This document shows positions 17,633-31,934 of a DNA stretch of 31,934 bases, piece after piece (within the stretch, counting starts at the first letter, position 1; the number at the start of each line of letters is the position of its first letter). The DNA is taken from IMG/VR virus record IMGVR_UViG_3300015263_000107, positions 1 through 31,934 of that record. The stretch is one strand, 5' to 3'. The DNA comes from a virus. The notes below the pieces were generated by a model, which ran no database searches, had not been told where the DNA came from, and saw only the letters and a program-made list of their open reading frames with translations. The position numbers were made by a program, and so were the translations under genes.

Positions 17633-19012
17633 TTACATCAAGTTGTTGACGATCACACGACGATAGTATACGTTGCTGTCTTCTGCAAGACGACCTTCAC
17701 CAACGTCACCGCCTTCAGCAAATGGGTTTGCTACCATGCCGTAACGAGTCTTGAAGCCAATCTTTGGCTGGAAGGTGTTAGGATCGACAGCACGTACCAT
17801 CTGTAGTGGAACGTATGGGCAGTAGAAGAGACCAGCGTCAAATGCGCTTGAACCCTTGTAACCAACTACTAGGTAGTTAGCACCTGCATATGGGTCAATG
17901 TATACACGTAGGCGACCATTTAGAACACCTGCGAAGGTGTTGCCAGTATCGTCAACCTGTAGGTTGTTGCTGTTAAGAGCAGGAGCGTAGTCAAGGACAC
18001 CAGCCATCTGTAGAGCAGACGCAACGTCTGAAGAACAGATAACGATGTTACCCTTACCGCGTCTGGTTCCCTTAGCGATTGCGTTAGCTTCACGCTCTAG
18101 CTGGAACATAAGACCCTTGAACTTTTCAACTGACCAACGACCATTTGAGTCGGTGTCTAGGTCGAAAATACCTGCATTGGTTGTGCCGGTTTCAGCACCA
18201 CGCTTAGCAGTGATAACAACTGTACGGACAACTTCACGGTTGATATCAGCTAGAATTTCTGAAGACAGAATGTTTGAAAGTTCTGTCTCTGCATCAAGAC
18301 CATGAATTGCCTTTAGGTCCTGTGCAAGTTCTAGTGAGTATTCAGCCTTTAGTGCACGGCTCTTAGCAGTGACACTAACCTTCTCAATGGAGAAAGCCAT
18401 TTCTGGGAAGATTGAAGTTGTGGTTGAACCTAGACCTTCAGCAAGTGAAGTCTTGATACCACCAGCAAAGTTGTATAGGTCATTTGTTGCGTTTGTGTTA
18501 GCAGCAGGATATGTGCCAATGTTATTAGCAGCGCCACCAACAGTGTTTGAAGCTGCGTAGCCAGCGTCAGTTGCAGATGCGTTTGCACCACCACGAGCAG
18601 AACGGCCAGTCTGAACTTCATTGTAGAAGGTTTCTGGACCAGTCTGGTTCTCGTAACGTGCTCTCATTGCGAAGATAAGTCCGGTTGGACCGGTCATTGG
18701 CTGAACGCCGCAGATATCGTAAGCAACGAGGTTTGGCATAGCACGACGAACTAGTGAAATCAATACAGGGTCAAATGTATCGATAGCACCGGTTGAAGCG
18801 GTTGATGAAGATGCGCCCATTGAGTTGGTTGGAGCAGCTTCACCTAGGAAACCACCACCCATTGAAGCACGTGCTTCACGGATAGCATTCTCAGTATTCT
18901 CAAGAATCTGAGCGGTAACAGCGCGCTTGTGGCTGTCCTTAATTTCTGGAAGGTCCTCATGCTCAAGGATTGGCTTCCACTTGGTTTGAACTGTTTCGTC
19001 TAGATATGACAT
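17633..19012 (-). CDS. 23: Major capsid protein precursor gp23
   Basis: The 459-residue protein is the T4 gp23-type major capsid protein (521 in T4). It has a charged N-terminal propeptide (TVQTKWKPILEHEDLPEIKD) and a prohead protease site at LGE|A (Glu58/Ala59), which matches the [LI]xE|[AG] consensus. Then comes the HK97-like core beginning TFDPVLISLVRRAMPNLVAYDICGVQPM. The C-terminus keeps YRRVIVNNLM-type sequence. GGGAG precedes the ATG; a late TATAAATA box stands 43 bases upstream and a terminator follows, so this gene can be transcribed on its own as expected for the most abundant protein. Confidence 0.97.
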   Translation of the reverse strand: MSYLDETVQTKWKPILEHEDLPEIKDSHKRAVTAQILENTENAIREARASMGGGFLGEAAPTNSMGASSSTASTGAIDTFDPVLISLVRRAMPNLVAYDICGVQPMTGPTGLIFAMRARYENQTGPETFYNEVQTGRSARGGANASATDAGYAASNTVGGAANNIGTYPAANTNATNDLYNFAGGIKTSLAEGLGSTTTSIFPEMAFSIEKVSVTAKSRALKAEYSLELAQDLKAIHGLDAETELSNILSSEILADINREVVRTVVITAKRGAETGTTNAGIFDLDTDSNGRWSVEKFKGLMFQLEREANAIAKGTRRGKGNIVICSSDVASALQMAGVLDYAPALNSNNLQVDDTGNTFAGVLNGRLRVYIDPYAGANYLVVGYKGSSAFDAGLFYCPYVPLQMVRAVDPNTFQPKIGFKTRYGMVANPFAEGGDVGEGRLAEDSNVYYRRVIVNNLM

Positions 19013-20143: not shown

Positions 20144-20151
20144 TATTTATT
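20144..20151 (-). promoter_or_regulatory. Late promoter variant AATAAATA before gene 22
   Basis: The minus strand reads AATAAATA, one base from the late consensus, overlapping the end of gene 21 and 29 bases before the gene 22 start. Weaker than the canonical boxes; inferred. Confidence 0.45.
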
Positions 20152-20821
20152 AAAACGTAATCTTTGAAAGTCGATTGACGTATCTTTCGAAAAGCTTAAG
20201 CTTATTCTCTTGTATTTCACGAGAAGAAAGGCTTCTAATATGCTTCTTTGCTTCTTCGGCAAGTTCAACAGCTTTCCAACCCATTTTCTCATCATAGAAC
20301 CATTCTACTGATTCCATAATACCATTAACCCAAGCACTAGGTGCAGAAGGATCAGCCACAATATCAGCAGCAGTTGCTAGACGGAAGTCGTTCTGGACTT
20401 CGTTAACACCTTCTTTGTTAAGCTTAAGTGAACCCATACCACGTGATGAAACACCAAGTGAACCACCGGATTCAATAAGACCCTTAGCAGTGTTACCCAT
20501 TGGTGTGTTTGTGATTAATGCCTTACCGATATAATCTGTGCCTTCCTTGCGGAGAGAAACAGTGCGGTGTGAGACTAGATTAAGATTAATCTGTGGACCA
20601 TTTGGATGCCCAAGTTCACCCCACGCACAATTTCTGTCAACGGCTTCCTTGACATATCGTGCAACTTCGCTATCCATGACTTCTTCTGGATACATACGAC
20701 CATTGCGGTTTTTAATTGCTGACTGTAGGAAAACGCCTTCGATGTACATGTTCTTTGAGCCATCTTCCTTGGCTTCGGTCACATATCTAACGTCTTCAAT
20801 TGTTTCCGTAATAAGTTTCAT
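20150..20821 (-). CDS. 21: Prohead protease gp21
   Basis: The 223-residue protein is the T4 gp21-type serine protease (212 residues in T4). It carries MYIEGVFLQSAIKNRNGRMYP near the N-terminus, histidine candidates in GELGHPNG (His72) and VSHRTVS (His85), and the nucleophile region LGVSSRGMG (Ser125/Ser126). It cleaves capsid and core precursors at [LI]xE sites during head maturation. Its own first residues MKLITE fit such a site. GAGG precedes the ATG. The position upstream of 22 and 23 is as in T4. Confidence 0.93.
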   Translation of the reverse strand: MKLITETIEDVRYVTEAKEDGSKNMYIEGVFLQSAIKNRNGRMYPEEVMDSEVARYVKEAVDRNCAWGELGHPNGPQINLNLVSHRTVSLRKEGTDYIGKALITNTPMGNTAKGLIESGGSLGVSSRGMGSLKLNKEGVNEVQNDFRLATAADIVADPSAPSAWVNGIMESVEWFYDEKMGWKAVELAEEAKKHIRSLSSREIQENKLKLFERYVNRLSKITF

Positions 20822-20830
20822 TTTTACCTC

Positions 20831-21214
20831 TTAGACTTGGAAATAAGTTGAGTTAGCGTTAAGATTTGTGCCAACCTTCTGTAGCTCAAGCATGACATAA
20901 GCGTTAGCGGTTCCTACAAAATTGACTACGATATCAGATTCCTGATTTAATGTAAGTGCCATACCAGCACCGGCATAATCGAAAGAACCTGAGGAATCAT
21001 ATACGCCAACAAGTTCACCACCACGAGTAAGTGTGATGTGACCAGCGTTACCAGTGCCTTGAAAAATCTGTGCGATATATGCGCCTGTCAGTACTTCATT
21101 TCCATAAGCAATATCGCTTACAGAGCTATTACCGGCAACCACGATGGTATTACTACCATTAAGGTGTACCACAGCAGATGTACCCGGCTTATTTGAAAGT
21201 ACCTTCTTAGCCAT
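20831..21214 (-). CDS. Putative beta-rich virion protein near prohead genes
   Basis: I do not recognise this 127-residue protein by family. It is rich in Gly, Ala, Val, Ser and Asn with repeated strand patterns (VVHLNGSNTIVVAGNS, GHITLTRGGELVGVYD, AYVMLELQKVG), suggesting a beta-sandwich. Its place between the core protein and protease genes suggests a virion component, possibly a capsid decoration protein. The start overlaps the stop of the upstream gene by one base, so it is translated with the head genes. Confidence 0.6.
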   Translation of the reverse strand: MAKKVLSNKPGTSAVVHLNGSNTIVVAGNSSVSDIAYGNEVLTGAYIAQIFQGTGNAGHITLTRGGELVGVYDSSGSFDYAGAGMALTLNQESDIVVNFVGTANAYVMLELQKVGTNLNANSTYFQV

Positions 21215-21852
21215 TATTCGCCTCTCATTTCAATCGCAAAGTTAAGGAGTTCGATTACGCCTTCACGAGTTTCCGCTTTGTCAAGCATTCTATACTGATT
21301 GTCTTCAGAAAGATTGCTGAATACGTCAAGCATAGTGTGGATATGGCTTTCTGAAAACCCTTCCATCTTTGCTACAAGACGCTCTTCCAATGTTGGTGGA
21401 GTGTAATCAGCAATGTCTGGCATAAACTTCTCAAGGGTACGATTAACGATATCTTCCTTGGTTAGCTTCTTTTTCTTCTTAGCCATCTTGGTAGCTGTAG
21501 CATACATTACTTCATCAGCACGATCACCGTACTGATCTTTCCAGTTACCGCCCTTCATCTTTTTGACAAGACTTTCGCGCTTCTTCTTTTGAGCAGCAGT
21601 AAGCTTCTTTTCTTCAAGCTCTTCTACTTCCTCATAAACTTTTTCGTCCTGACCCGGATCATAGCCATGGCGAGTCTTACTACGGCTACCCATTTTAATA
21701 TTGGTTGCCTGAAATACGTCATCACCATTTGCCTTACCGTTTACTTCGTTACGGTCAGCCTTCTTTTCGATTGTGTGCTTGTCAACAAACTTTTGCTCGT
21801 CTGGTGACTTTGGTCTATATACCTCGTTAAAGATATCCTTAAGCGTTTTCAT
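21214..21852 (-). CDS. Putative prohead core protein (gp68-like position)
   Basis: The 212-residue protein is highly charged, with a lysine-rich middle (LTAAQKKKRESLVKKMKGG, DRADEVMYATATKMAKKKKK) of a kind common in structural proteins of distant T4-like phages, and a helical C-terminus. It starts MKTLKDIFNE, resembling the capsid-targeting N-terminus of T4 internal proteins (MKTYQEFIAE). In T4 the small core protein gp68 is encoded between 67 and 21; the position is the same, but the protein is longer and I see no clear sequence match to gp68. Overlaps gene 67 by 14 bases. Confidence 0.62.
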   Translation of the reverse strand: MKTLKDIFNEVYRPKSPDEQKFVDKHTIEKKADRNEVNGKANGDDVFQATNIKMGSRSKTRHGYDPGQDEKVYEEVEELEEKKLTAAQKKKRESLVKKMKGGNWKDQYGDRADEVMYATATKMAKKKKKLTKEDIVNRTLEKFMPDIADYTPPTLEERLVAKMEGFSESHIHTMLDVFSNLSEDNQYRMLDKAETREGVIELLNFAIEMRGE

Positions 21853-22126
21853 CAGTGATGCCCTCGTTGTCTAAATCTTCCAAGTCTTCCAAGTCAAGGT
21901 CGATATCGTCTAGGTCAAGATCATCAATGTCAATGTCTTCTAGATCATCTTCGACTTCATCACCGATATCATCGTCTTCGCTGCCATAGATTGACTGTGC
22001 GTATTCAACACGCTTTGCGTCAAGTGCAGCCATAGCCTTTTCACGCATCAACTTATCGAATACATCTGTAAAATCTACAGGATTCTTGTCGATTGCTAGT
22101 CCAAGTAACTCATTTGTCTCTGGCAT
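21839..22126 (-). CDS. 67: Prohead core protein gp67
   Basis: The 95-residue protein has a helical N-terminal half (DFTDVFDKLMREKAMAALDA) and a C-terminal half dominated by Asp, Glu and Leu (DIDIDDLDLDDIDLDLEDL), like the acidic T4 core protein gp67 (80 residues). It lies between the portal gene 20 and the next core gene, as in T4. AAAGGA and a canonical late box 27 bases upstream support late expression. Identification rests on composition and position. Confidence 0.75.
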   Translation of the reverse strand: MPETNELLGLAIDKNPVDFTDVFDKLMREKAMAALDAKRVEYAQSIYGSEDDDIGDEVEDDLEDIDIDDLDLDDIDLDLEDLEDLDNEGITDENA

Positions 22127-28713: not shown

Positions 28714-29765
28714 AGTCCGTCTATAATGTCTATAATGAATCCATAGTCACTGTTTGCGTAGATTTGGTCTGGTGAGACAGATAGTGGTGGAGCAATGACC
28801 GTATCGATGACTGTTCCTGTAGCACCTGTATCCGAACCAATCACGATATCACCGTTTGCAATTTGACCATGAATGTTTCTCGTAGAGAATGAAGTCGAAT
28901 TACTTGCGGCAACATATGCATAATTATCAGCGTCAACGTATACTTTTTCTGTAATATCAAAAGTACCAGTAGTATTTGCTAATGTATATGTATACAAATG
29001 AACACTTGCAGAAGTTGCCATGCCATTTGCGAACATACCCGGAACAATGTGAACCACACTAGCAGGGTCTGTATTGTTTGGATTAGCATCCCACACAGAA
29101 ATGTTGGCTGGTGGATATGTAAGATTTAGTGTGATATCCTTAATAATACCATTTGAAGTGCTGTAGGTAGGACCAAAGAAATATGCCTTCATCGTGAACT
29201 TTAGTGTCCAGATGATCGCTCTTCTATTAATGAAGTCACCTTCATAGGTATCCTCTTGATCTACCGTTTCAAGTGTGATAGGAATGTCGTGCTTTTGATT
29301 AAGATCAGTATTAAGATTTAGTGTCGCCGTCCATGTAGGATTGAAAAACGGAAGGATTTGCTCGACAATATACGTACCGTCTTCCACGTTTTTCGTCATA
29401 ATTGACAACGTGAATTCGATGTTGTATGGAACGGGCTGATACTGGTATTTCACACCATTTGGATTATTAGGATCAATGACAGTGACTCTATTAAAAGTTG
29501 GTAACTTTCTTGTAGGATCGTAATACATGTTGGTCATTTCAAATGTCATTCTTGGTAGCTGAATGGCAATTGGTCTATTCAAACCGGGGTTGCCTTCAAG
29601 ACGAGCAAGAAACTTTTCACGAGGACCATAGTTCAATGGCACCTTCATGTTCTGAATCTGTGTACCAGTATTGTCGTATCTCTTTAACCAAATGTTATTA
29701 AAAAGAGTGCCGAAATAAATGACGTACTTACGCAGCGTACCATGTCCAAATGTAGTACCGAACAT
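28710..29765 (-). CDS. 15: Tail completion and sheath stabiliser gp15
   Basis: The 351-residue protein begins with the gp15-type region (MFGTTFGHGTLRKYVIYFGT, then NNIWLKRYD and NMKVPLNYGPREKFLARLEG) and conserved RPIAIQLPRMTFEMTNMYYD. T4 gp15 has 272 residues; the extra length is a Ser/Thr/Val-rich C-terminal part (about 240-351, with SDTGATGTVIDTV) that looks like an added beta domain. gp15 caps the tail and joins it to the neck. TAATG coupling with gene 14 upstream. Confidence 0.93.
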   Translation of the reverse strand: MFGTTFGHGTLRKYVIYFGTLFNNIWLKRYDNTGTQIQNMKVPLNYGPREKFLARLEGNPGLNRPIAIQLPRMTFEMTNMYYDPTRKLPTFNRVTVIDPNNPNGVKYQYQPVPYNIEFTLSIMTKNVEDGTYIVEQILPFFNPTWTATLNLNTDLNQKHDIPITLETVDQEDTYEGDFINRRAIIWTLKFTMKAYFFGPTYSTSNGIIKDITLNLTYPPANISVWDANPNNTDPASVVHIVPGMFANGMATSASVHLYTYTLANTTGTFDITEKVYVDADNYAYVAASNSTSFSTRNIHGQIANGDIVIGSDTGATGTVIDTVIAPPLSVSPDQIYANSDYGFIIDIIDGL

Positions 29766-30430
29766 TAAACGTTTCCTTCACTGAAAGGATCGATGGTAGA
29801 CCAGTCAACGATATCCTCGCCATCTTCCTGAAATTCTTGGTTTGTAGCAAATACATCAGACATTGCTTCTTCAAACGCATTATTAGAATACACGTTTGAT
29901 ACAGAAAATCTTTCTTCAATGGCATCGATTTCATCAACACCAGTTTCGAATCTTTCGTTTGAGTATTCCCACACTTCGCAAACAACATCCCAAACCTGCA
30001 AGGAACCCATCTGATAGAAGAATGCAGAGTTGTTTACGTATTTAATGACAAAGATACGCTTCATCATTGTAGAGTAAACAAGGTCGCCTTCTCTTGGTCT
30101 CTGAATATCAGGACGCTGAGCGGCAATCTCATTACCGAATACTCTTCTGGATACGGTAAAAGTAATCTGGTCGCGGATTTCTAGATTAAATTTGGATAGG
30201 AATGTGCCGTCACCTTCGTATGAGTCATAGGACTTGACGTACATGTCAAATTCATATGCTGAGCGATATGTTGATAGGGTATCTTCGCCGTAGATATCAT
30301 CCTTCTTCACAAGCTCTCGTGGAAGGTAATATACACTATGACCATAAATGGCAAGCGTTTCTACCACCAAATCATCGATAAGGCTTTGCTCTGCATAATT
30401 GTTGAAGGTGTCAAAATATAAATTTGGCAT
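29765..30430 (-). CDS. 14: Neck protein gp14
   Basis: The 221-residue protein matches T4 gp14 (256 residues) by order and by segments MPNLYFDTFNNYAEQSLIDD, GHSVYYLPRELVKKDDIYGED and RPREGDLVYSTMMKRIFVIK. It forms with gp13 the neck that joins head and tail. The C-terminus is acidic and variable. Its start overlaps the stop of the acetyltransferase-like gene (TAATG), not gene 13 as in T4. Confidence 0.92.
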   Translation of the reverse strand: MPNLYFDTFNNYAEQSLIDDLVVETLAIYGHSVYYLPRELVKKDDIYGEDTLSTYRSAYEFDMYVKSYDSYEGDGTFLSKFNLEIRDQITFTVSRRVFGNEIAAQRPDIQRPREGDLVYSTMMKRIFVIKYVNNSAFFYQMGSLQVWDVVCEVWEYSNERFETGVDEIDAIEERFSVSNVYSNNAFEEAMSDVFATNQEFQEDGEDIVDWSTIDPFSEGNV

Positions 30431-30777
30431 TATTTCGGTTCTCTATACATTGTTTCTCTTGTGGAGAAGTCTTTGTTTTTGCCTTTGTTTTCTACGTAAC
30501 CATGACTCTTGTAAAACTTTACCAATCTAGATTTTGTCCCGCCAAAATCAGATGAAGGTGTCAATACTACCTTTAATTTATGTTTATCGGCATGAGCATT
30601 TATAGCTTTCATTGATTGTGAGCCAATACCCTGATTTCTTTTTTCTTTAGGAACGACAATCTTTGAAACAGTTAATGTGTTTTTATTCTGATAAACACTA
30701 TGATCAACGCCAATATTGTCTAAAGACTTTCTTAGCGATTCTACATTTTCAGATATAAATTGCTCAAGTGTTTTCAT
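30430..30777 (-). CDS. GNAT-type acetyltransferase with capsid-targeting-like N-terminus
   Basis: The 115-residue protein has the GNAT acetyl-CoA motif A VPKEKRNQGIGSQSMKAINA, with R/Q-x-x-G-x-G at RNQGIG (about residues 47-52), a following strand LKVVLTPSSDFGG, and KFYKSHGYVE, the typical C-terminal GNAT strand-helix. Its first residues MKTLEQFISE resemble the MKTYQEFIAE targeting peptide of T4 internal head proteins, which is cut by gp21 at [LI]xE; here I-S-E|N (residues 8-11) would be the site. It is fused by TAATG overlaps to gene 13 upstream and gene 14 downstream, so it is co-expressed with late virion genes. The substrate is unknown. A packaged, injected enzyme is an inference. Confidence 0.82.
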   Translation of the reverse strand: MKTLEQFISENVESLRKSLDNIGVDHSVYQNKNTLTVSKIVVPKEKRNQGIGSQSMKAINAHADKHKLKVVLTPSSDFGGTKSRLVKFYKSHGYVENKGKNKDFSTRETMYREPK

Positions 30778-31523
30778 TAGCCTATCATATCCGATACTGG
30801 CAAGCTGTAGCTGGAAATCATTTCTGCTTCCATCTTTTCGATTTCATTCATAGCATCGTTCAAAATCTTTTCACCATTGAACTCGACACCACCCGGTAGT
30901 TTCATGCCTGTAAACTTGGTTAGGTTAGTACCCCATTGATATTTGATCTTGGCTGTGGTATAATTTTGTAGCCAACGGTCACTCCATACGTCTGTCCAGA
31001 CTTCAGGGTCAACAACTTCGTATGCTTCGACTACAAGGTATTCCAGATCGTTTGTCTTTGTGGTCCATTCCATATCGACATAGAGACGGTTTCTGTGTCG
31101 ATTGTAGCGGATTGGCTGTTGACCAACTAGAAGTTCTGAGACAAGAGCAAGGTGTTCCATGGTCATGTAATATGGTACCATTGAAACGCTTGTCAGTGTG
31201 TAAAGATCGTTAAGAGCAATCTGGTAGCGAATGTTAAATAGGTCATCGGAACGAACAATAGGATCGGCAATAGGAAATACTCTCACCGCACCAATTACGT
31301 TCTCTGGTAGAGTGATATACTTGTTGATTTTATCTTCTGGCTGAATTGCATGTTTATAATAAATTTTATCAGAACCGTCAAAGTGATAATCCCAATAATA
31401 GCGCAAAGCTTCATCAATACGATCCTCAACCTGATCGTCATCAACGTTGATTTCGATAACAGGTTTGCCTAGCTTACGCAAGCAATATTCTTTGAATTCG
31501 TTTCTACTTGTTGGTACTGCCAT
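30777..31523 (-). CDS. 13: Neck protein gp13
   Basis: The 248-residue protein corresponds to T4 gp13 (309 residues), first of the neck/terminase/tail run 13-14-15-16-17. The opening RNEFKEYCLRKLGKPVIEIN, followed by DRIDEALRYYWDYHFDGS and ITLPENVIGAVRVFPI, is characteristic of gp13. It assembles on the portal to receive the tail. A canonical late box lies 32 bases upstream. The stop overlaps the start of the acetyltransferase-like gene. Confidence 0.93.
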   Translation of the reverse strand: MAVPTSRNEFKEYCLRKLGKPVIEINVDDDQVEDRIDEALRYYWDYHFDGSDKIYYKHAIQPEDKINKYITLPENVIGAVRVFPIADPIVRSDDLFNIRYQIALNDLYTLTSVSMVPYYMTMEHLALVSELLVGQQPIRYNRHRNRLYVDMEWTTKTNDLEYLVVEAYEVVDPEVWTDVWSDRWLQNYTTAKIKYQWGTNLTKFTGMKLPGGVEFNGEKILNDAMNEIEKMEAEMISSYSLPVSDMIG

Positions 31524-31554: not shown

Positions 31555-31562
31555 TATTTATA
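31555..31562 (-). promoter_or_regulatory. T4-type late promoter box TATAAATA before gene 13
   Basis: Exact TATAAATA on the minus strand within the 49-base divergent gap between gene 13 and the plus-strand heptose-kinase-like gene. It would start the whole 13-to-18 transcript. Confidence 0.83.
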
Positions 31563-31572
31563 AAAGGTGATT

Positions 31573-31934
31573 ATGATGAAAGTTTGTATCATTGGCGATA
31601 TTATTATTGACAACTACATTTATGGTACCGCAGAAAGGTTGTCGCCAGAGGCACCAATCCCCATTGTAAAGTGTCAGTCAGCTACAGAAAAGTTGGGCGG
31701 CGCTGGTAATCTATACGAAAATCTATTGTCCCTTGGTGTTGACGTTGACTTGCTTGATTTAAGTGAGCCACGATGTGTCAAGACACGTGTATTCTGTGAC
31801 GGGCATTATGTTACCAGAATTGATGAAGACGAAATGACGGATGGTAGCAAGGTATTGGATACCATTCGTGAGCTAGATTTTTCTGACTATGAGTATGTTA
31901 TTCTCAGCGATTACGGTAAGGGTGTTCTCGAATA
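31573..31934 (+). CDS. HldE/RfaE domain I-like sugar kinase, 3' end outside window
   Basis: The 120 residues present match the start of PfkB/ribokinase-fold D-glycero-D-manno-heptose-7-phosphate kinases (N-terminal domain of HldE): IIGDIIIDNYIYG, ERLSPEAPIPIVK, LGGAGNLYENLLSLGVDVDL, VKTRVF, YVTRIDEDE and VILSDYGKGVLE. The segment between the GGAxN helix and VKTR is about 35 residues shorter than in bacterial HldE, so part of the usual fold is missing. The gene is cut by the window edge. Tandem ATGs at 31573 and 31576 both have AAGG upstream. Substrate and role (LPS or capsule precursor metabolism, virion or DNA glycosylation) are inferred. Confidence 0.78.
   Translation, partial: MMKVCIIGDIIIDNYIYGTAERLSPEAPIPIVKCQSATEKLGGAGNLYENLLSLGVDVDLLDLSEPRCVKTRVFCDGHYVTRIDEDEMTDGSKVLDTIRELDFSDYEYVILSDYGKGVLE

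What the first reader, a model, noticed from the sequence alone, without database searches (positions are those of the whole stretch)
30430..30777. A GNAT acetyltransferase with a T4-style capsid-targeting tag, inserted between neck genes 13 and 14: candidate injected effector
Seen: a 115-residue GNAT-pattern protein whose first ten residues (MKTLEQFISE) mirror the T4 internal-protein targeting peptide MKTYQEFIAE, including the [LI]xE site for prohead protease gp21. Genes 13 and 14, adjacent in T4, are separated only by this gene, with TAATG junctions on both sides, so it would be made late together with virion parts. Known: T4 IPI-IPIII and Alt are packaged through such peptides, cleaved by gp21 and injected with DNA. 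Inference: this enzyme is loaded into the head and acetylates a host target at the moment of infection.
Basis: partly seen in the sequence, partly recalled or inferred. Interest (0 to 1): 0.8.

Follow-up and report, generated by a model that had tools for sequence, protein, structure and literature searches.

The report
Phage enzyme tagged for head delivery
A small acetyltransferase gene in an uncultured T4-like phage carries a short front-end tag like the one T4 uses to load proteins into its head for injection into bacteria, and relatives of the same enzyme occur inside very large phage proteins of a class thought to be injected, so it is probably an effector delivered together with the viral DNA.

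Summary
On the minus strand, 30777-30430 encodes a 115-residue GNAT (PF13508, 30 bits, cut-off 27) between neck genes 13 and 14, TAATG at both junctions, an exact T4 late-promoter octamer ahead of gene 13. MKTLEQFISE matches T4 IPII/IPIII MKTYQEFIAE at six of ten positions. The phage has its own S77 prohead protease, and its gp23 has a fitting site (FLGE|A).

(1) Relatives are mostly domains of larger ORFs (59 of 84 loci over 300 residues, 37 over 1000, none tagged); four of four giant ones scanned are polyvalent, the class Iyer 2017 describes as injected. Of 25 short ORFs, 14 carry the tag. S77 occurs in 8 of 21 tagged contigs and 0 of 24 untagged ones with the domain. By Z the best fold match is anti-CRISPR acetyltransferase AcrVA5 (11.3).

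Packaging, cleavage, injection and target are untested.

The parts
30430..30777 (-). Gene of the 115-residue GNAT acetyltransferase with T4-type N-terminal targeting peptide
   Evidence: PF13508 E 6.9e-7; phrog_10691 E 2.4e-28 at 2701-2797 of 3925
30748..30777 (-). Codons 1-10, MKTLEQFISE: candidate capsid targeting sequence, predicted prohead-protease cut after Glu10
   Evidence: Six of ten residues as in T4 ipII/ipIII; tag family
30433..30747 (-). Codons 11-115: mature acetyltransferase domain, basic (21 K/R, 10 D/E)
30777..31523 (-). Neck gene 13 homologue (head-tail adaptor), upstream neighbour, TAATG junction
   Evidence: phrog_211 E 5.5e-41
29765..30430 (-). Neck gene 14 homologue (head closure), downstream neighbour, TAATG junction
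   Evidence: PF11649 E 9.3e-31
31555..31562 (-). TATAAATA, exact T4-type late-promoter octamer, 31 nt between it and the gp13 start codon
   Evidence: one of seven such octamers in the window, of which three more precede gp18, the acidic ORF 21839-22126 and gp23
20150..20821 (-). gp21-type prohead core serine protease (Peptidase_S77), the enzyme expected to cut the tag
   Evidence: PF03420 E 2e-35
17633..19012 (-). gp23 major capsid protein; candidate cleavage site FLGE|AA after residue 58, fits [LI]xE
   Evidence: PF07068 E 1.3e-149

Best explanation
It is a late-expressed, head-packaged, injected acetyltransferase. Shown by sequence: a small GNAT domain of a family otherwise found mostly in larger, often polyvalent, phage proteins has at its very N-terminus a 10-residue T4-type capsid targeting sequence and sits in the neck-gene operon behind a late-promoter octamer. 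Inferred steps: the peptide docks the enzyme into the prohead core; gp21 cuts after Glu10 and frees residues 11-115, which are basic and stay with the DNA; the enzyme enters the next host with the DNA and acetylates a host protein within the first minutes. The most likely kind of target is a component of bacterial defence or of the host transcription/translation machinery: polyvalent GNATs sit beside ADP-ribosyltransferases, and the closest solved fold by Z is AcrVA5, reported to inactivate Cas12a by acetylation. I put packaging at about 0.75 and a host-directed defence or takeover role, given packaging, at about 0.7.
For: GNAT identity. Tag match to T4 ipII/ipIII. Published: the first 10 residues of IPIII suffice for loading, positions 4 and 7 matter for targeting, 8 and 10 for processing (PMC9026906, passages). 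Tag pattern: 134 ORFs in 120 stretches; 132 of 134 begin within 32 codons of an upstream in-frame stop, median 6; 130 cargo ORFs of 45 residues or more form 74 clusters; K/T-swapped control 2 stretches; Leu4 form at least 119 stretches, 113 of 120 ORFs within 32 codons of a stop. Cargo is basic: 85% net positive, median +8.8 per 100 aa; this GNAT is second most basic of the 43 window ORFs I took as genes, median -2.6. Tagged cargo includes ART-PolyVal E 9.7e-24 (L234), a GNAT (L155), S-AdoMet lyase matches in 4 of 88 and cytidylyltransferase-like in 3 of 88; 3 of 88 match a PHROG named internal head protein and 2 of 88 one named internal virion protein. Tagged GNATs have another tagged gene close by in 13 of 19 contigs (some are near-copies, and L155 was found by its tag). 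S77 protease in 8 of 21 tagged contigs and 0 of 24 contigs with the untagged domain in a large ORF. Four giant proteins scanned all have LPD22, and in L042 an ART-PolyVal domain directly precedes the GNAT, the architecture of Iyer 2017 (PMC5512222, section 11 read). AcrVA5 Z 11.3, rmsd 2.8, 94 aligned; next entry 9.6.
Against: No proteomic or functional evidence. Position 4 is Leu where T4 has Tyr, one of the two residues that matter for targeting in T4. This virus shows only one strict tag in the parts held (window, G001, G002), so no second tagged gene in the same genome confirms that its core reads the peptide; the nearest, 21852-21214 (MKTLKDIFNEVY), is a poor match. Six of 19 contigs with a tagged GNAT, this virus among them, show no tagged neighbour in the DNA held. 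Solo GNATs of three T4-like records with S77 and gp23 (G006-G008) lack the tag. The first ten residues are modelled as part of the first helix. A single origin of tagged GNATs is not rejected (AU p 0.322). The Leu4 set is less basic (68% net positive) and includes families that may have nothing to do with heads. AcrVA5 is first by Z but only rank 14 by Foldseek E-value and E 0.094 by sequence profile; a shared fold does not show function.
Confidence: 0.6

Rival explanations
1. It is packaged but works as a basic internal protein (DNA-associated or core filler), with little or no enzymatic role after injection.
For: Cargo of this tag is generally basic and this protein is the second most basic of 43 window ORFs.
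Against: The core is strongly conserved across 47 aligned domains (G50, F88, N97, G99, N101, K102, D103 invariant; R47 and G52 nearly so), which a filler would not need.
Confidence: 0.12
2. It is a late cytoplasmic enzyme of the producing cell, for instance acetylating virion or host proteins during assembly, and the N-terminal match to the T4 peptide is accidental or only part of the first helix.
For: The peptide is predicted to be part of a helix 4-21 that continues into the domain; Leu at position 4 departs from T4; T4-like records G006-G008 have the solo enzyme without the tag.
Against: The tag is highly enriched and N-terminal on many kinds of cargo. In the 59 large ORFs alignment to this protein starts at query residue 20 in the median (range 2-36, 10 of 59 at residue 10 or before), so the first ten residues look like an addition. 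Most tagged GNAT contigs have another tagged gene close by.
Confidence: 0.15
3. The enzyme is injected but its target is host RNA polymerase or ribosomes (takeover, as with T4 Alt or phage Rac) and not a defence system.
For: ART/GNAT pairing recalls Alt; the jumbo-phage survey proposes such a role for polyvalent ARTs and GNATs (PMC7824862, passages); Rac, a GNAT, triggers RNAP alpha cleavage and its mutants suggest that acetyltransferase activity is needed (PMC7552054, passages).
Against: No sequence evidence for either target; the best fold match by Z is AcrVA5, and T4 Ip1, Ip2 and Ip3 each block a restriction enzyme (PMC12373910, passages).
Confidence: 0.3

Closest known systems
T4 internal proteins IPI-IPIII and their capsid targeting sequence
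   Same: 10-residue N-terminal peptide with M1 K2 T3 F7 I8 E10 (compared with ipII and ipIII only), S77 protease in the genome, late-promoter octamer, small basic cargo
   Different: Position 4 Leu instead of Tyr; cargo is a GNAT, whereas T4 Ip1-Ip3 block GmrSD nucleases (PMC12373910, passages); packaging not shown here
GNAT domains of phage polyvalent proteins (Iyer et al. 2017, PMC5512222)
   Same: Same domain family by sequence, 40-62% identity over the aligned part in 46 relatives, tagged ones included; in L042 the domain follows an ART-PolyVal domain as described
   Different: Here a single-domain protein of 115 residues with its own targeting peptide in a T4-type phage; that it is exactly Iyer's first family was not checked against their sequences
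AcrVA5 anti-CRISPR acetyltransferase
   Same: Small GNAT of similar size and fold, Z 11.3, TM-score 0.71 by its length
   Different: 19-22% identity; reported from a Moraxella prophage region (PMC7552054 passage); whether AcrVA5 is ever packaged was not looked at; target of the present protein unknown
Phage Rac and T4 Alt (protein-modifying takeover enzymes)
   Same: Phage enzymes that act on host proteins to favour infection; Alt is packaged and injected (PMC9026906 and PMC5512222, passages)
   Different: Alt is an ADP-ribosyltransferase; for Rac the words virion and packaged do not occur in the paper's main text; no sequence comparison to either was run

Membership tests
GNAT acetyltransferase superfamily | Curated GNAT profile above its cut-off | tested here: met
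   PF13508 30 bits, cut-off 27
GNAT acetyltransferase superfamily | Acetyl-CoA motif R/Q-x-x-G-x-G/A (motif recalled) and GNAT fold | tested here: met
   RNQGIG 47-52, G50 invariant, R47 and G52 nearly so in 47 sequences; model pLDDT 89.6; acetyltransferase chains fill the fold list
GNAT acetyltransferase superfamily | Acetyltransferase activity | not testable with these tools
   needs enzyme assay
T4-type capsid-targeted internal protein | N-terminal 10-residue peptide with Phe7 and [LI]xE at 8-10 | tested here: met
   MKTLEQFISE against T4 ipII/ipIII
T4-type capsid-targeted internal protein | Tyr/aromatic at position 4 as in T4 | tested here: inconclusive
   Leu here; Leu4 peptides are common at gene starts in viral contigs, at least 119 stretches, but some of those families may not be head proteins
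T4-type capsid-targeted internal protein | Cognate S77 prohead protease and a gp23 site of the same form in the genome | tested here: met
   PF03420 E 2e-35; FLGE|AA in gp23; that the site is used is inferred
T4-type capsid-targeted internal protein | Present in the head, cut after the tag, injected | not testable with these tools
   uncultured virus; needs proteomics
Polyvalent protein | Two or more unlike domains in one polypeptide | tested here: not met
   115 residues, one domain
GNAT family of polyvalent proteins | Sequence homology to GNAT domains inside polyvalent proteins | tested here: met
   59 of 84 homologous loci are ORFs over 300 aa, 37 over 1000; LPD22 in 4 of 4 giant ones scanned
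AcrVA5 | Same fold | tested here: met
   Z 11.3, rmsd 2.8, 94 aligned
AcrVA5 | Sequence relationship beyond the superfamily | tested here: inconclusive
   profile search E 0.094
AcrVA5 | Acetylates Cas12a | not testable with these tools
   needs biochemistry

The most novel reading that the evidence does not exclude
The T4 capsid targeting sequence is a general export-like tag across environmental T4-superfamily viruses, used to deliver an exchangeable arsenal of enzymes (GNAT, ADP-ribosyltransferase, SAM lyase, metallopeptidase, nucleotidyltransferase) in runs of tagged genes. These viruses use a split form of the polyvalent protein: effector domains that other phages fuse into one giant injected chain are each made separately and loaded by their own 10-residue tag.
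Probability: 0.55. Interest if true: 0.82.

Novelty: new variant of a known kind. Interest (0 to 1): 0.62.

Why it matters
If the tag means packaging, a 10-residue N-terminal motif lets one read candidate injected effectors directly from genomes and metagenomes of T4-type viruses, as signal peptides do for secreted proteins. It turns a large set of unknown genes into testable candidates for anti-defence or takeover enzymes acting before any phage gene is expressed, and it links two delivery solutions, polyvalent giant proteins and T4 head cargo, through one enzyme family.

Tried and rejected
Single tagging event versus repeated capture: the tree put this GNAT among untagged domains and eight other tagged GNATs on a separate branch, with L002 and L003 far off, but holding the nine tagged rows together is not rejected (AU p 0.322; L002, L003, L066, L083 and L132 were left out of that tree), so I make no claim of independent capture.

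ART identity of the gene next to the tagged GNATs in G003-G005, L155, L177, L229: Pfam finds nothing, nor for the YHGT gene of L259; profile comparison with ART-PolyVal gives probability 55.6 over 25 columns; a PDB profile search gives no ART; L155 has a phrog_5470 (RNA 2'-phosphotransferase) match of E 7.4e-4. I call it ART-like only. The tagged ART in L234 is firm.

SAM lyase: 4 of 88 tagged proteins match PF23780; I did not identify which. Guessed members L141, L154, L158 found no solved structure, L141, L154 and L197 no Pfam family, and L247:3883-4182 only two weak unrelated Pfam hits (E 0.021 and 0.089).

Metallopeptidase P0005 in G003 carries the peptide form MKKYTEFLTE, has HELVH and a phrog_87 match E 1.2e-6, but no Pfam family above cut-off; the MPTase-PolyVal match is E 0.038.

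Weak PHROG hits of single tagged proteins to internal head/virion families (E 0.0004 to 0.09) are not used as evidence. The virion RNA polymerase hits of the tblastn search have E 0.1 to 0.6 and are not used either.

A separate N-terminal tag for the untagged solo GNATs: in G011 three ORFs share an N-terminus like M..IIKE(N/D)GxYx..E; in G007 one regular expression found nothing else like MLSFLEYWK. Not followed.

Searches of named phages gave no match for the ART-like protein or for the module DNA. PADLOC gave nothing for this GNAT. Paper searches: 'capsid targeting sequence' with 'cyanophage' found only the T4 head review, six printed tag heptapeptides found no paper, and searches listed none that I saw describing this; only that open-access library was searched.

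The S77 comparison used 21 of 120 tagged loci and 24 of 59 large-ORF loci, chosen as contigs over 30 kb from printed lengths; tagged loci L213-L252 (lengths then unseen) were left out, and L019 (43 kb, large ORF) by oversight. Contigs are fragments and the tagged ones are longer on average, which favours the tagged set. One search's neighbour test was too strict (it missed those of L254 and L255, seen as L069 and L072) and was redone by hand. One search translated the wrong stretch of T4 and was of no use.

Full report
Observation. The ORF at 30777-30430, minus strand, encodes 115 residues beginning MKTLEQFISE|NVESLRK. It is a GNAT by Pfam (PF13508, 30 bits, cut-off 27) and by fold (model with 47 family sequences, pLDDT 89.6, residues 1-10 mean 68). 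It lies between gp13 and gp14 with TAATG on both sides. An exact TATAAATA stands 31 nt before gp13; the window has seven such octamers on both strands, three more of them before gp18, the acidic ORF 21839-22126 and gp23, so the single site is weak evidence alone. T4 ipII and ipIII both begin MKTYQEFIAE.

Same virus. L005, L006 and L007 are the same virus as the window (99.99-100% identity). In the window, G001 and G002 this is the only strict tag found. The ORF at 21852-21214, beside the prohead genes, begins MKTLKDIFNEVY, a looser likeness.

Machinery. The window holds an S77 prohead protease (PF03420 E 2e-35) and gp23. Before its conserved domain gp23 has FLGE|AA at residue 58, the form [LI]xE|A, so the phage's own protease probably accepts ISE|N.

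Is the tag real? I scanned the viral contig collection with a degenerate DNA pattern for MKT[FY]x[QE]F[ILMF]xE. 132 of 134 begin within 32 codons of an upstream in-frame stop, median 6, as gene starts do. Apart from the tag, 130 ORFs of 45 residues or more form 74 clusters by phmmer at E 1e-5. The same pattern with K and T exchanged gave 2 stretches, one of which looks like a true variant. With Leu4, as in this gene, at least 119 stretches were found, 113 of 120 ORFs within 32 codons of a stop, 111 ORFs in 43 clusters; that set is less basic (68% net positive) and contains families that may have nothing to do with heads. In T4-like sequence held for other reasons the strict motif occurs, in ORFs of 60 residues or more, only at the two GNATs that it was known to contain; T4 gene 61.1 (54 aa, MKTFKEFIKE) fell under that filter.

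What does the tag carry? Of 88 tagged proteins scanned (of 134), Pfam matches at E 1e-3 include S-AdoMet lyase (4), cytidylyltransferase-like (3), DPBB (2), ART-PolyVal (1), GNAT (1, by three models), HNH (1) and several DUFs; 16 families in all. The ART-PolyVal protein is L234:6037-6816, E 9.7e-24. PHROGs name 3 of 88 internal head protein and 2 of 88 internal virion protein. Among 19 contigs with a tagged GNAT, 13 have another tagged gene close by (L003, L050, L055, L065, L069, L072, L073, L077, L080, L155, L259, L329, L331) and 6 do not in the DNA held (S-CRM01, this virus, L260-L263); several are near-copies, L155 was found by its tag, and the GNAT-like gene of L329 and L331 scores low (39.6 bits). 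In G005 the run lies next to two baseplate wedge genes. Cargo is basic: 85% net positive; this GNAT ranks second of the 43 window ORFs I took as genes.

Relatives of the enzyme. In 84 loci (80 of 92 found, plus L002, L003, L132, L155; some are copies of one another), 59 encode the domain in ORFs over 300 residues, 37 of them over 1000, none with the tag anywhere in the ORF; 25 are short ORFs, 14 with the tag, of which three are this virus and one (L155) was found by its tag. Four giant proteins scanned all have the LPD22 polyvalent domain; in L042 an ART-PolyVal domain (955-1142) directly precedes the GNAT. Iyer et al. 2017 describe two GNAT families in polyvalent proteins, one typically next to an ART in the same chain, and infer that such proteins are injected (PMC5512222; passages and section 11). 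Named records with a significant match include ones annotated DarB-like antirestriction and PLxRFG protein. So one enzyme family appears in phages with two ways of loading proteins: inside a giant chain, or behind a 10-residue tag. This is the main new point.

Association with the protease. S77 was found in 8 of 21 tagged contigs and 0 of 24 contigs with the domain in a large ORF (Fisher p 9e-4). Contig choice and length differ, as told under Tried and rejected.

Counter-evidence. The solo GNATs of G006, G007 and G008 (gp23 and S77 present) and of G011 have other N-termini. The tree does not establish repeated tagging. Leu4 differs from T4 at a position that matters for targeting (PMC9026906, passages). 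The tagged T4 gene 61.1 is annotated only as hypothetical and lies away from the ip genes, so the tag alone does not prove a head protein.

Mechanism. In T4 the first 10 residues of IPIII suffice for loading, foreign proteins fused to IPIII or its tag are packaged and delivered, and positions 8 and 10 govern processing (PMC9026906, passages). T4 Ip1-Ip3 each block a different GmrSD restriction enzyme (PMC12373910, passages). The closest fold by Z is AcrVA5 (11.3; rank 14 by Foldseek E-value), reported to acetylate Lys635 of Cas12a (stated in PMC7552054, passage). Hence my preferred reading: an injected acetyltransferase that disables a host defence or takeover target before phage gene expression. 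Shown: gene, tag, family, context, protease. Inferred: packaging, cutting, injection, target.

Novelty. Both halves are known; their combination, and the breadth of the tag in environmental viruses, I did not find in the library searched (listings and passages only). New variant of a known kind.

Noticed in passing
L126:18966-19130, minus strand (T4 gene 61.1): T4's own 54-residue gp61.1, annotated hypothetical, begins MKTFKEFIKE, the same tag form as the internal proteins: either an unlisted head cargo or a warning that the tag alone is not proof.
   Followed up: partly
window 21214-21852, minus strand: A 212-residue ORF between prohead core and protease genes begins MKTLKDIFNEVY, a loose likeness of the targeting peptide; no Pfam family above its cut-off.
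   Followed up: partly
window 31574-31934, plus strand: A divergent, truncated ORF (MMKVCIIGDIIIDNYIYGTAERLSPEAP...) that looks like a sugar kinase of the ADP-heptose type; name recalled, no search run.
   Followed up: no
L234:6037-7309: A tagged ART-PolyVal protein (E 9.7e-24) followed by another tagged gene: a firm case of a polyvalent effector domain with the T4-type tag.
   Followed up: partly
L259, L329, L331, L220: Four tagged genes within about 3 kb each; in L259, L329 and L331 a GNAT-like gene and a YHGT ART-like gene are among them.
   Followed up: partly
4 of 88 tagged proteins: S-adenosylmethionine lyase matches among tagged cargo; the solved environmental phage lyase Svi3-3 came from a DNA fragment whose native start is unknown (PMC7877911, passages).
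   Followed up: partly
L097:15165-15539, minus strand: A HELVH metallopeptidase-like protein with a variant tag MKKYTEFLTE heads the tagged run of G003.
   Followed up: partly
L113:5408, L113:8508, L114:2397 (G011): Three ORFs share an N-terminus like M..IIKE(N/D)GxYx..E, one of them a solo GNAT: possibly a different loading tag in another T4-like lineage.
   Followed up: no
L374:4727-5428 and L374:8859-9500, minus strand: Two Leu4-tagged genes on a 29.6 kb contig whose name shares the metagenome number of L005.
   Followed up: no
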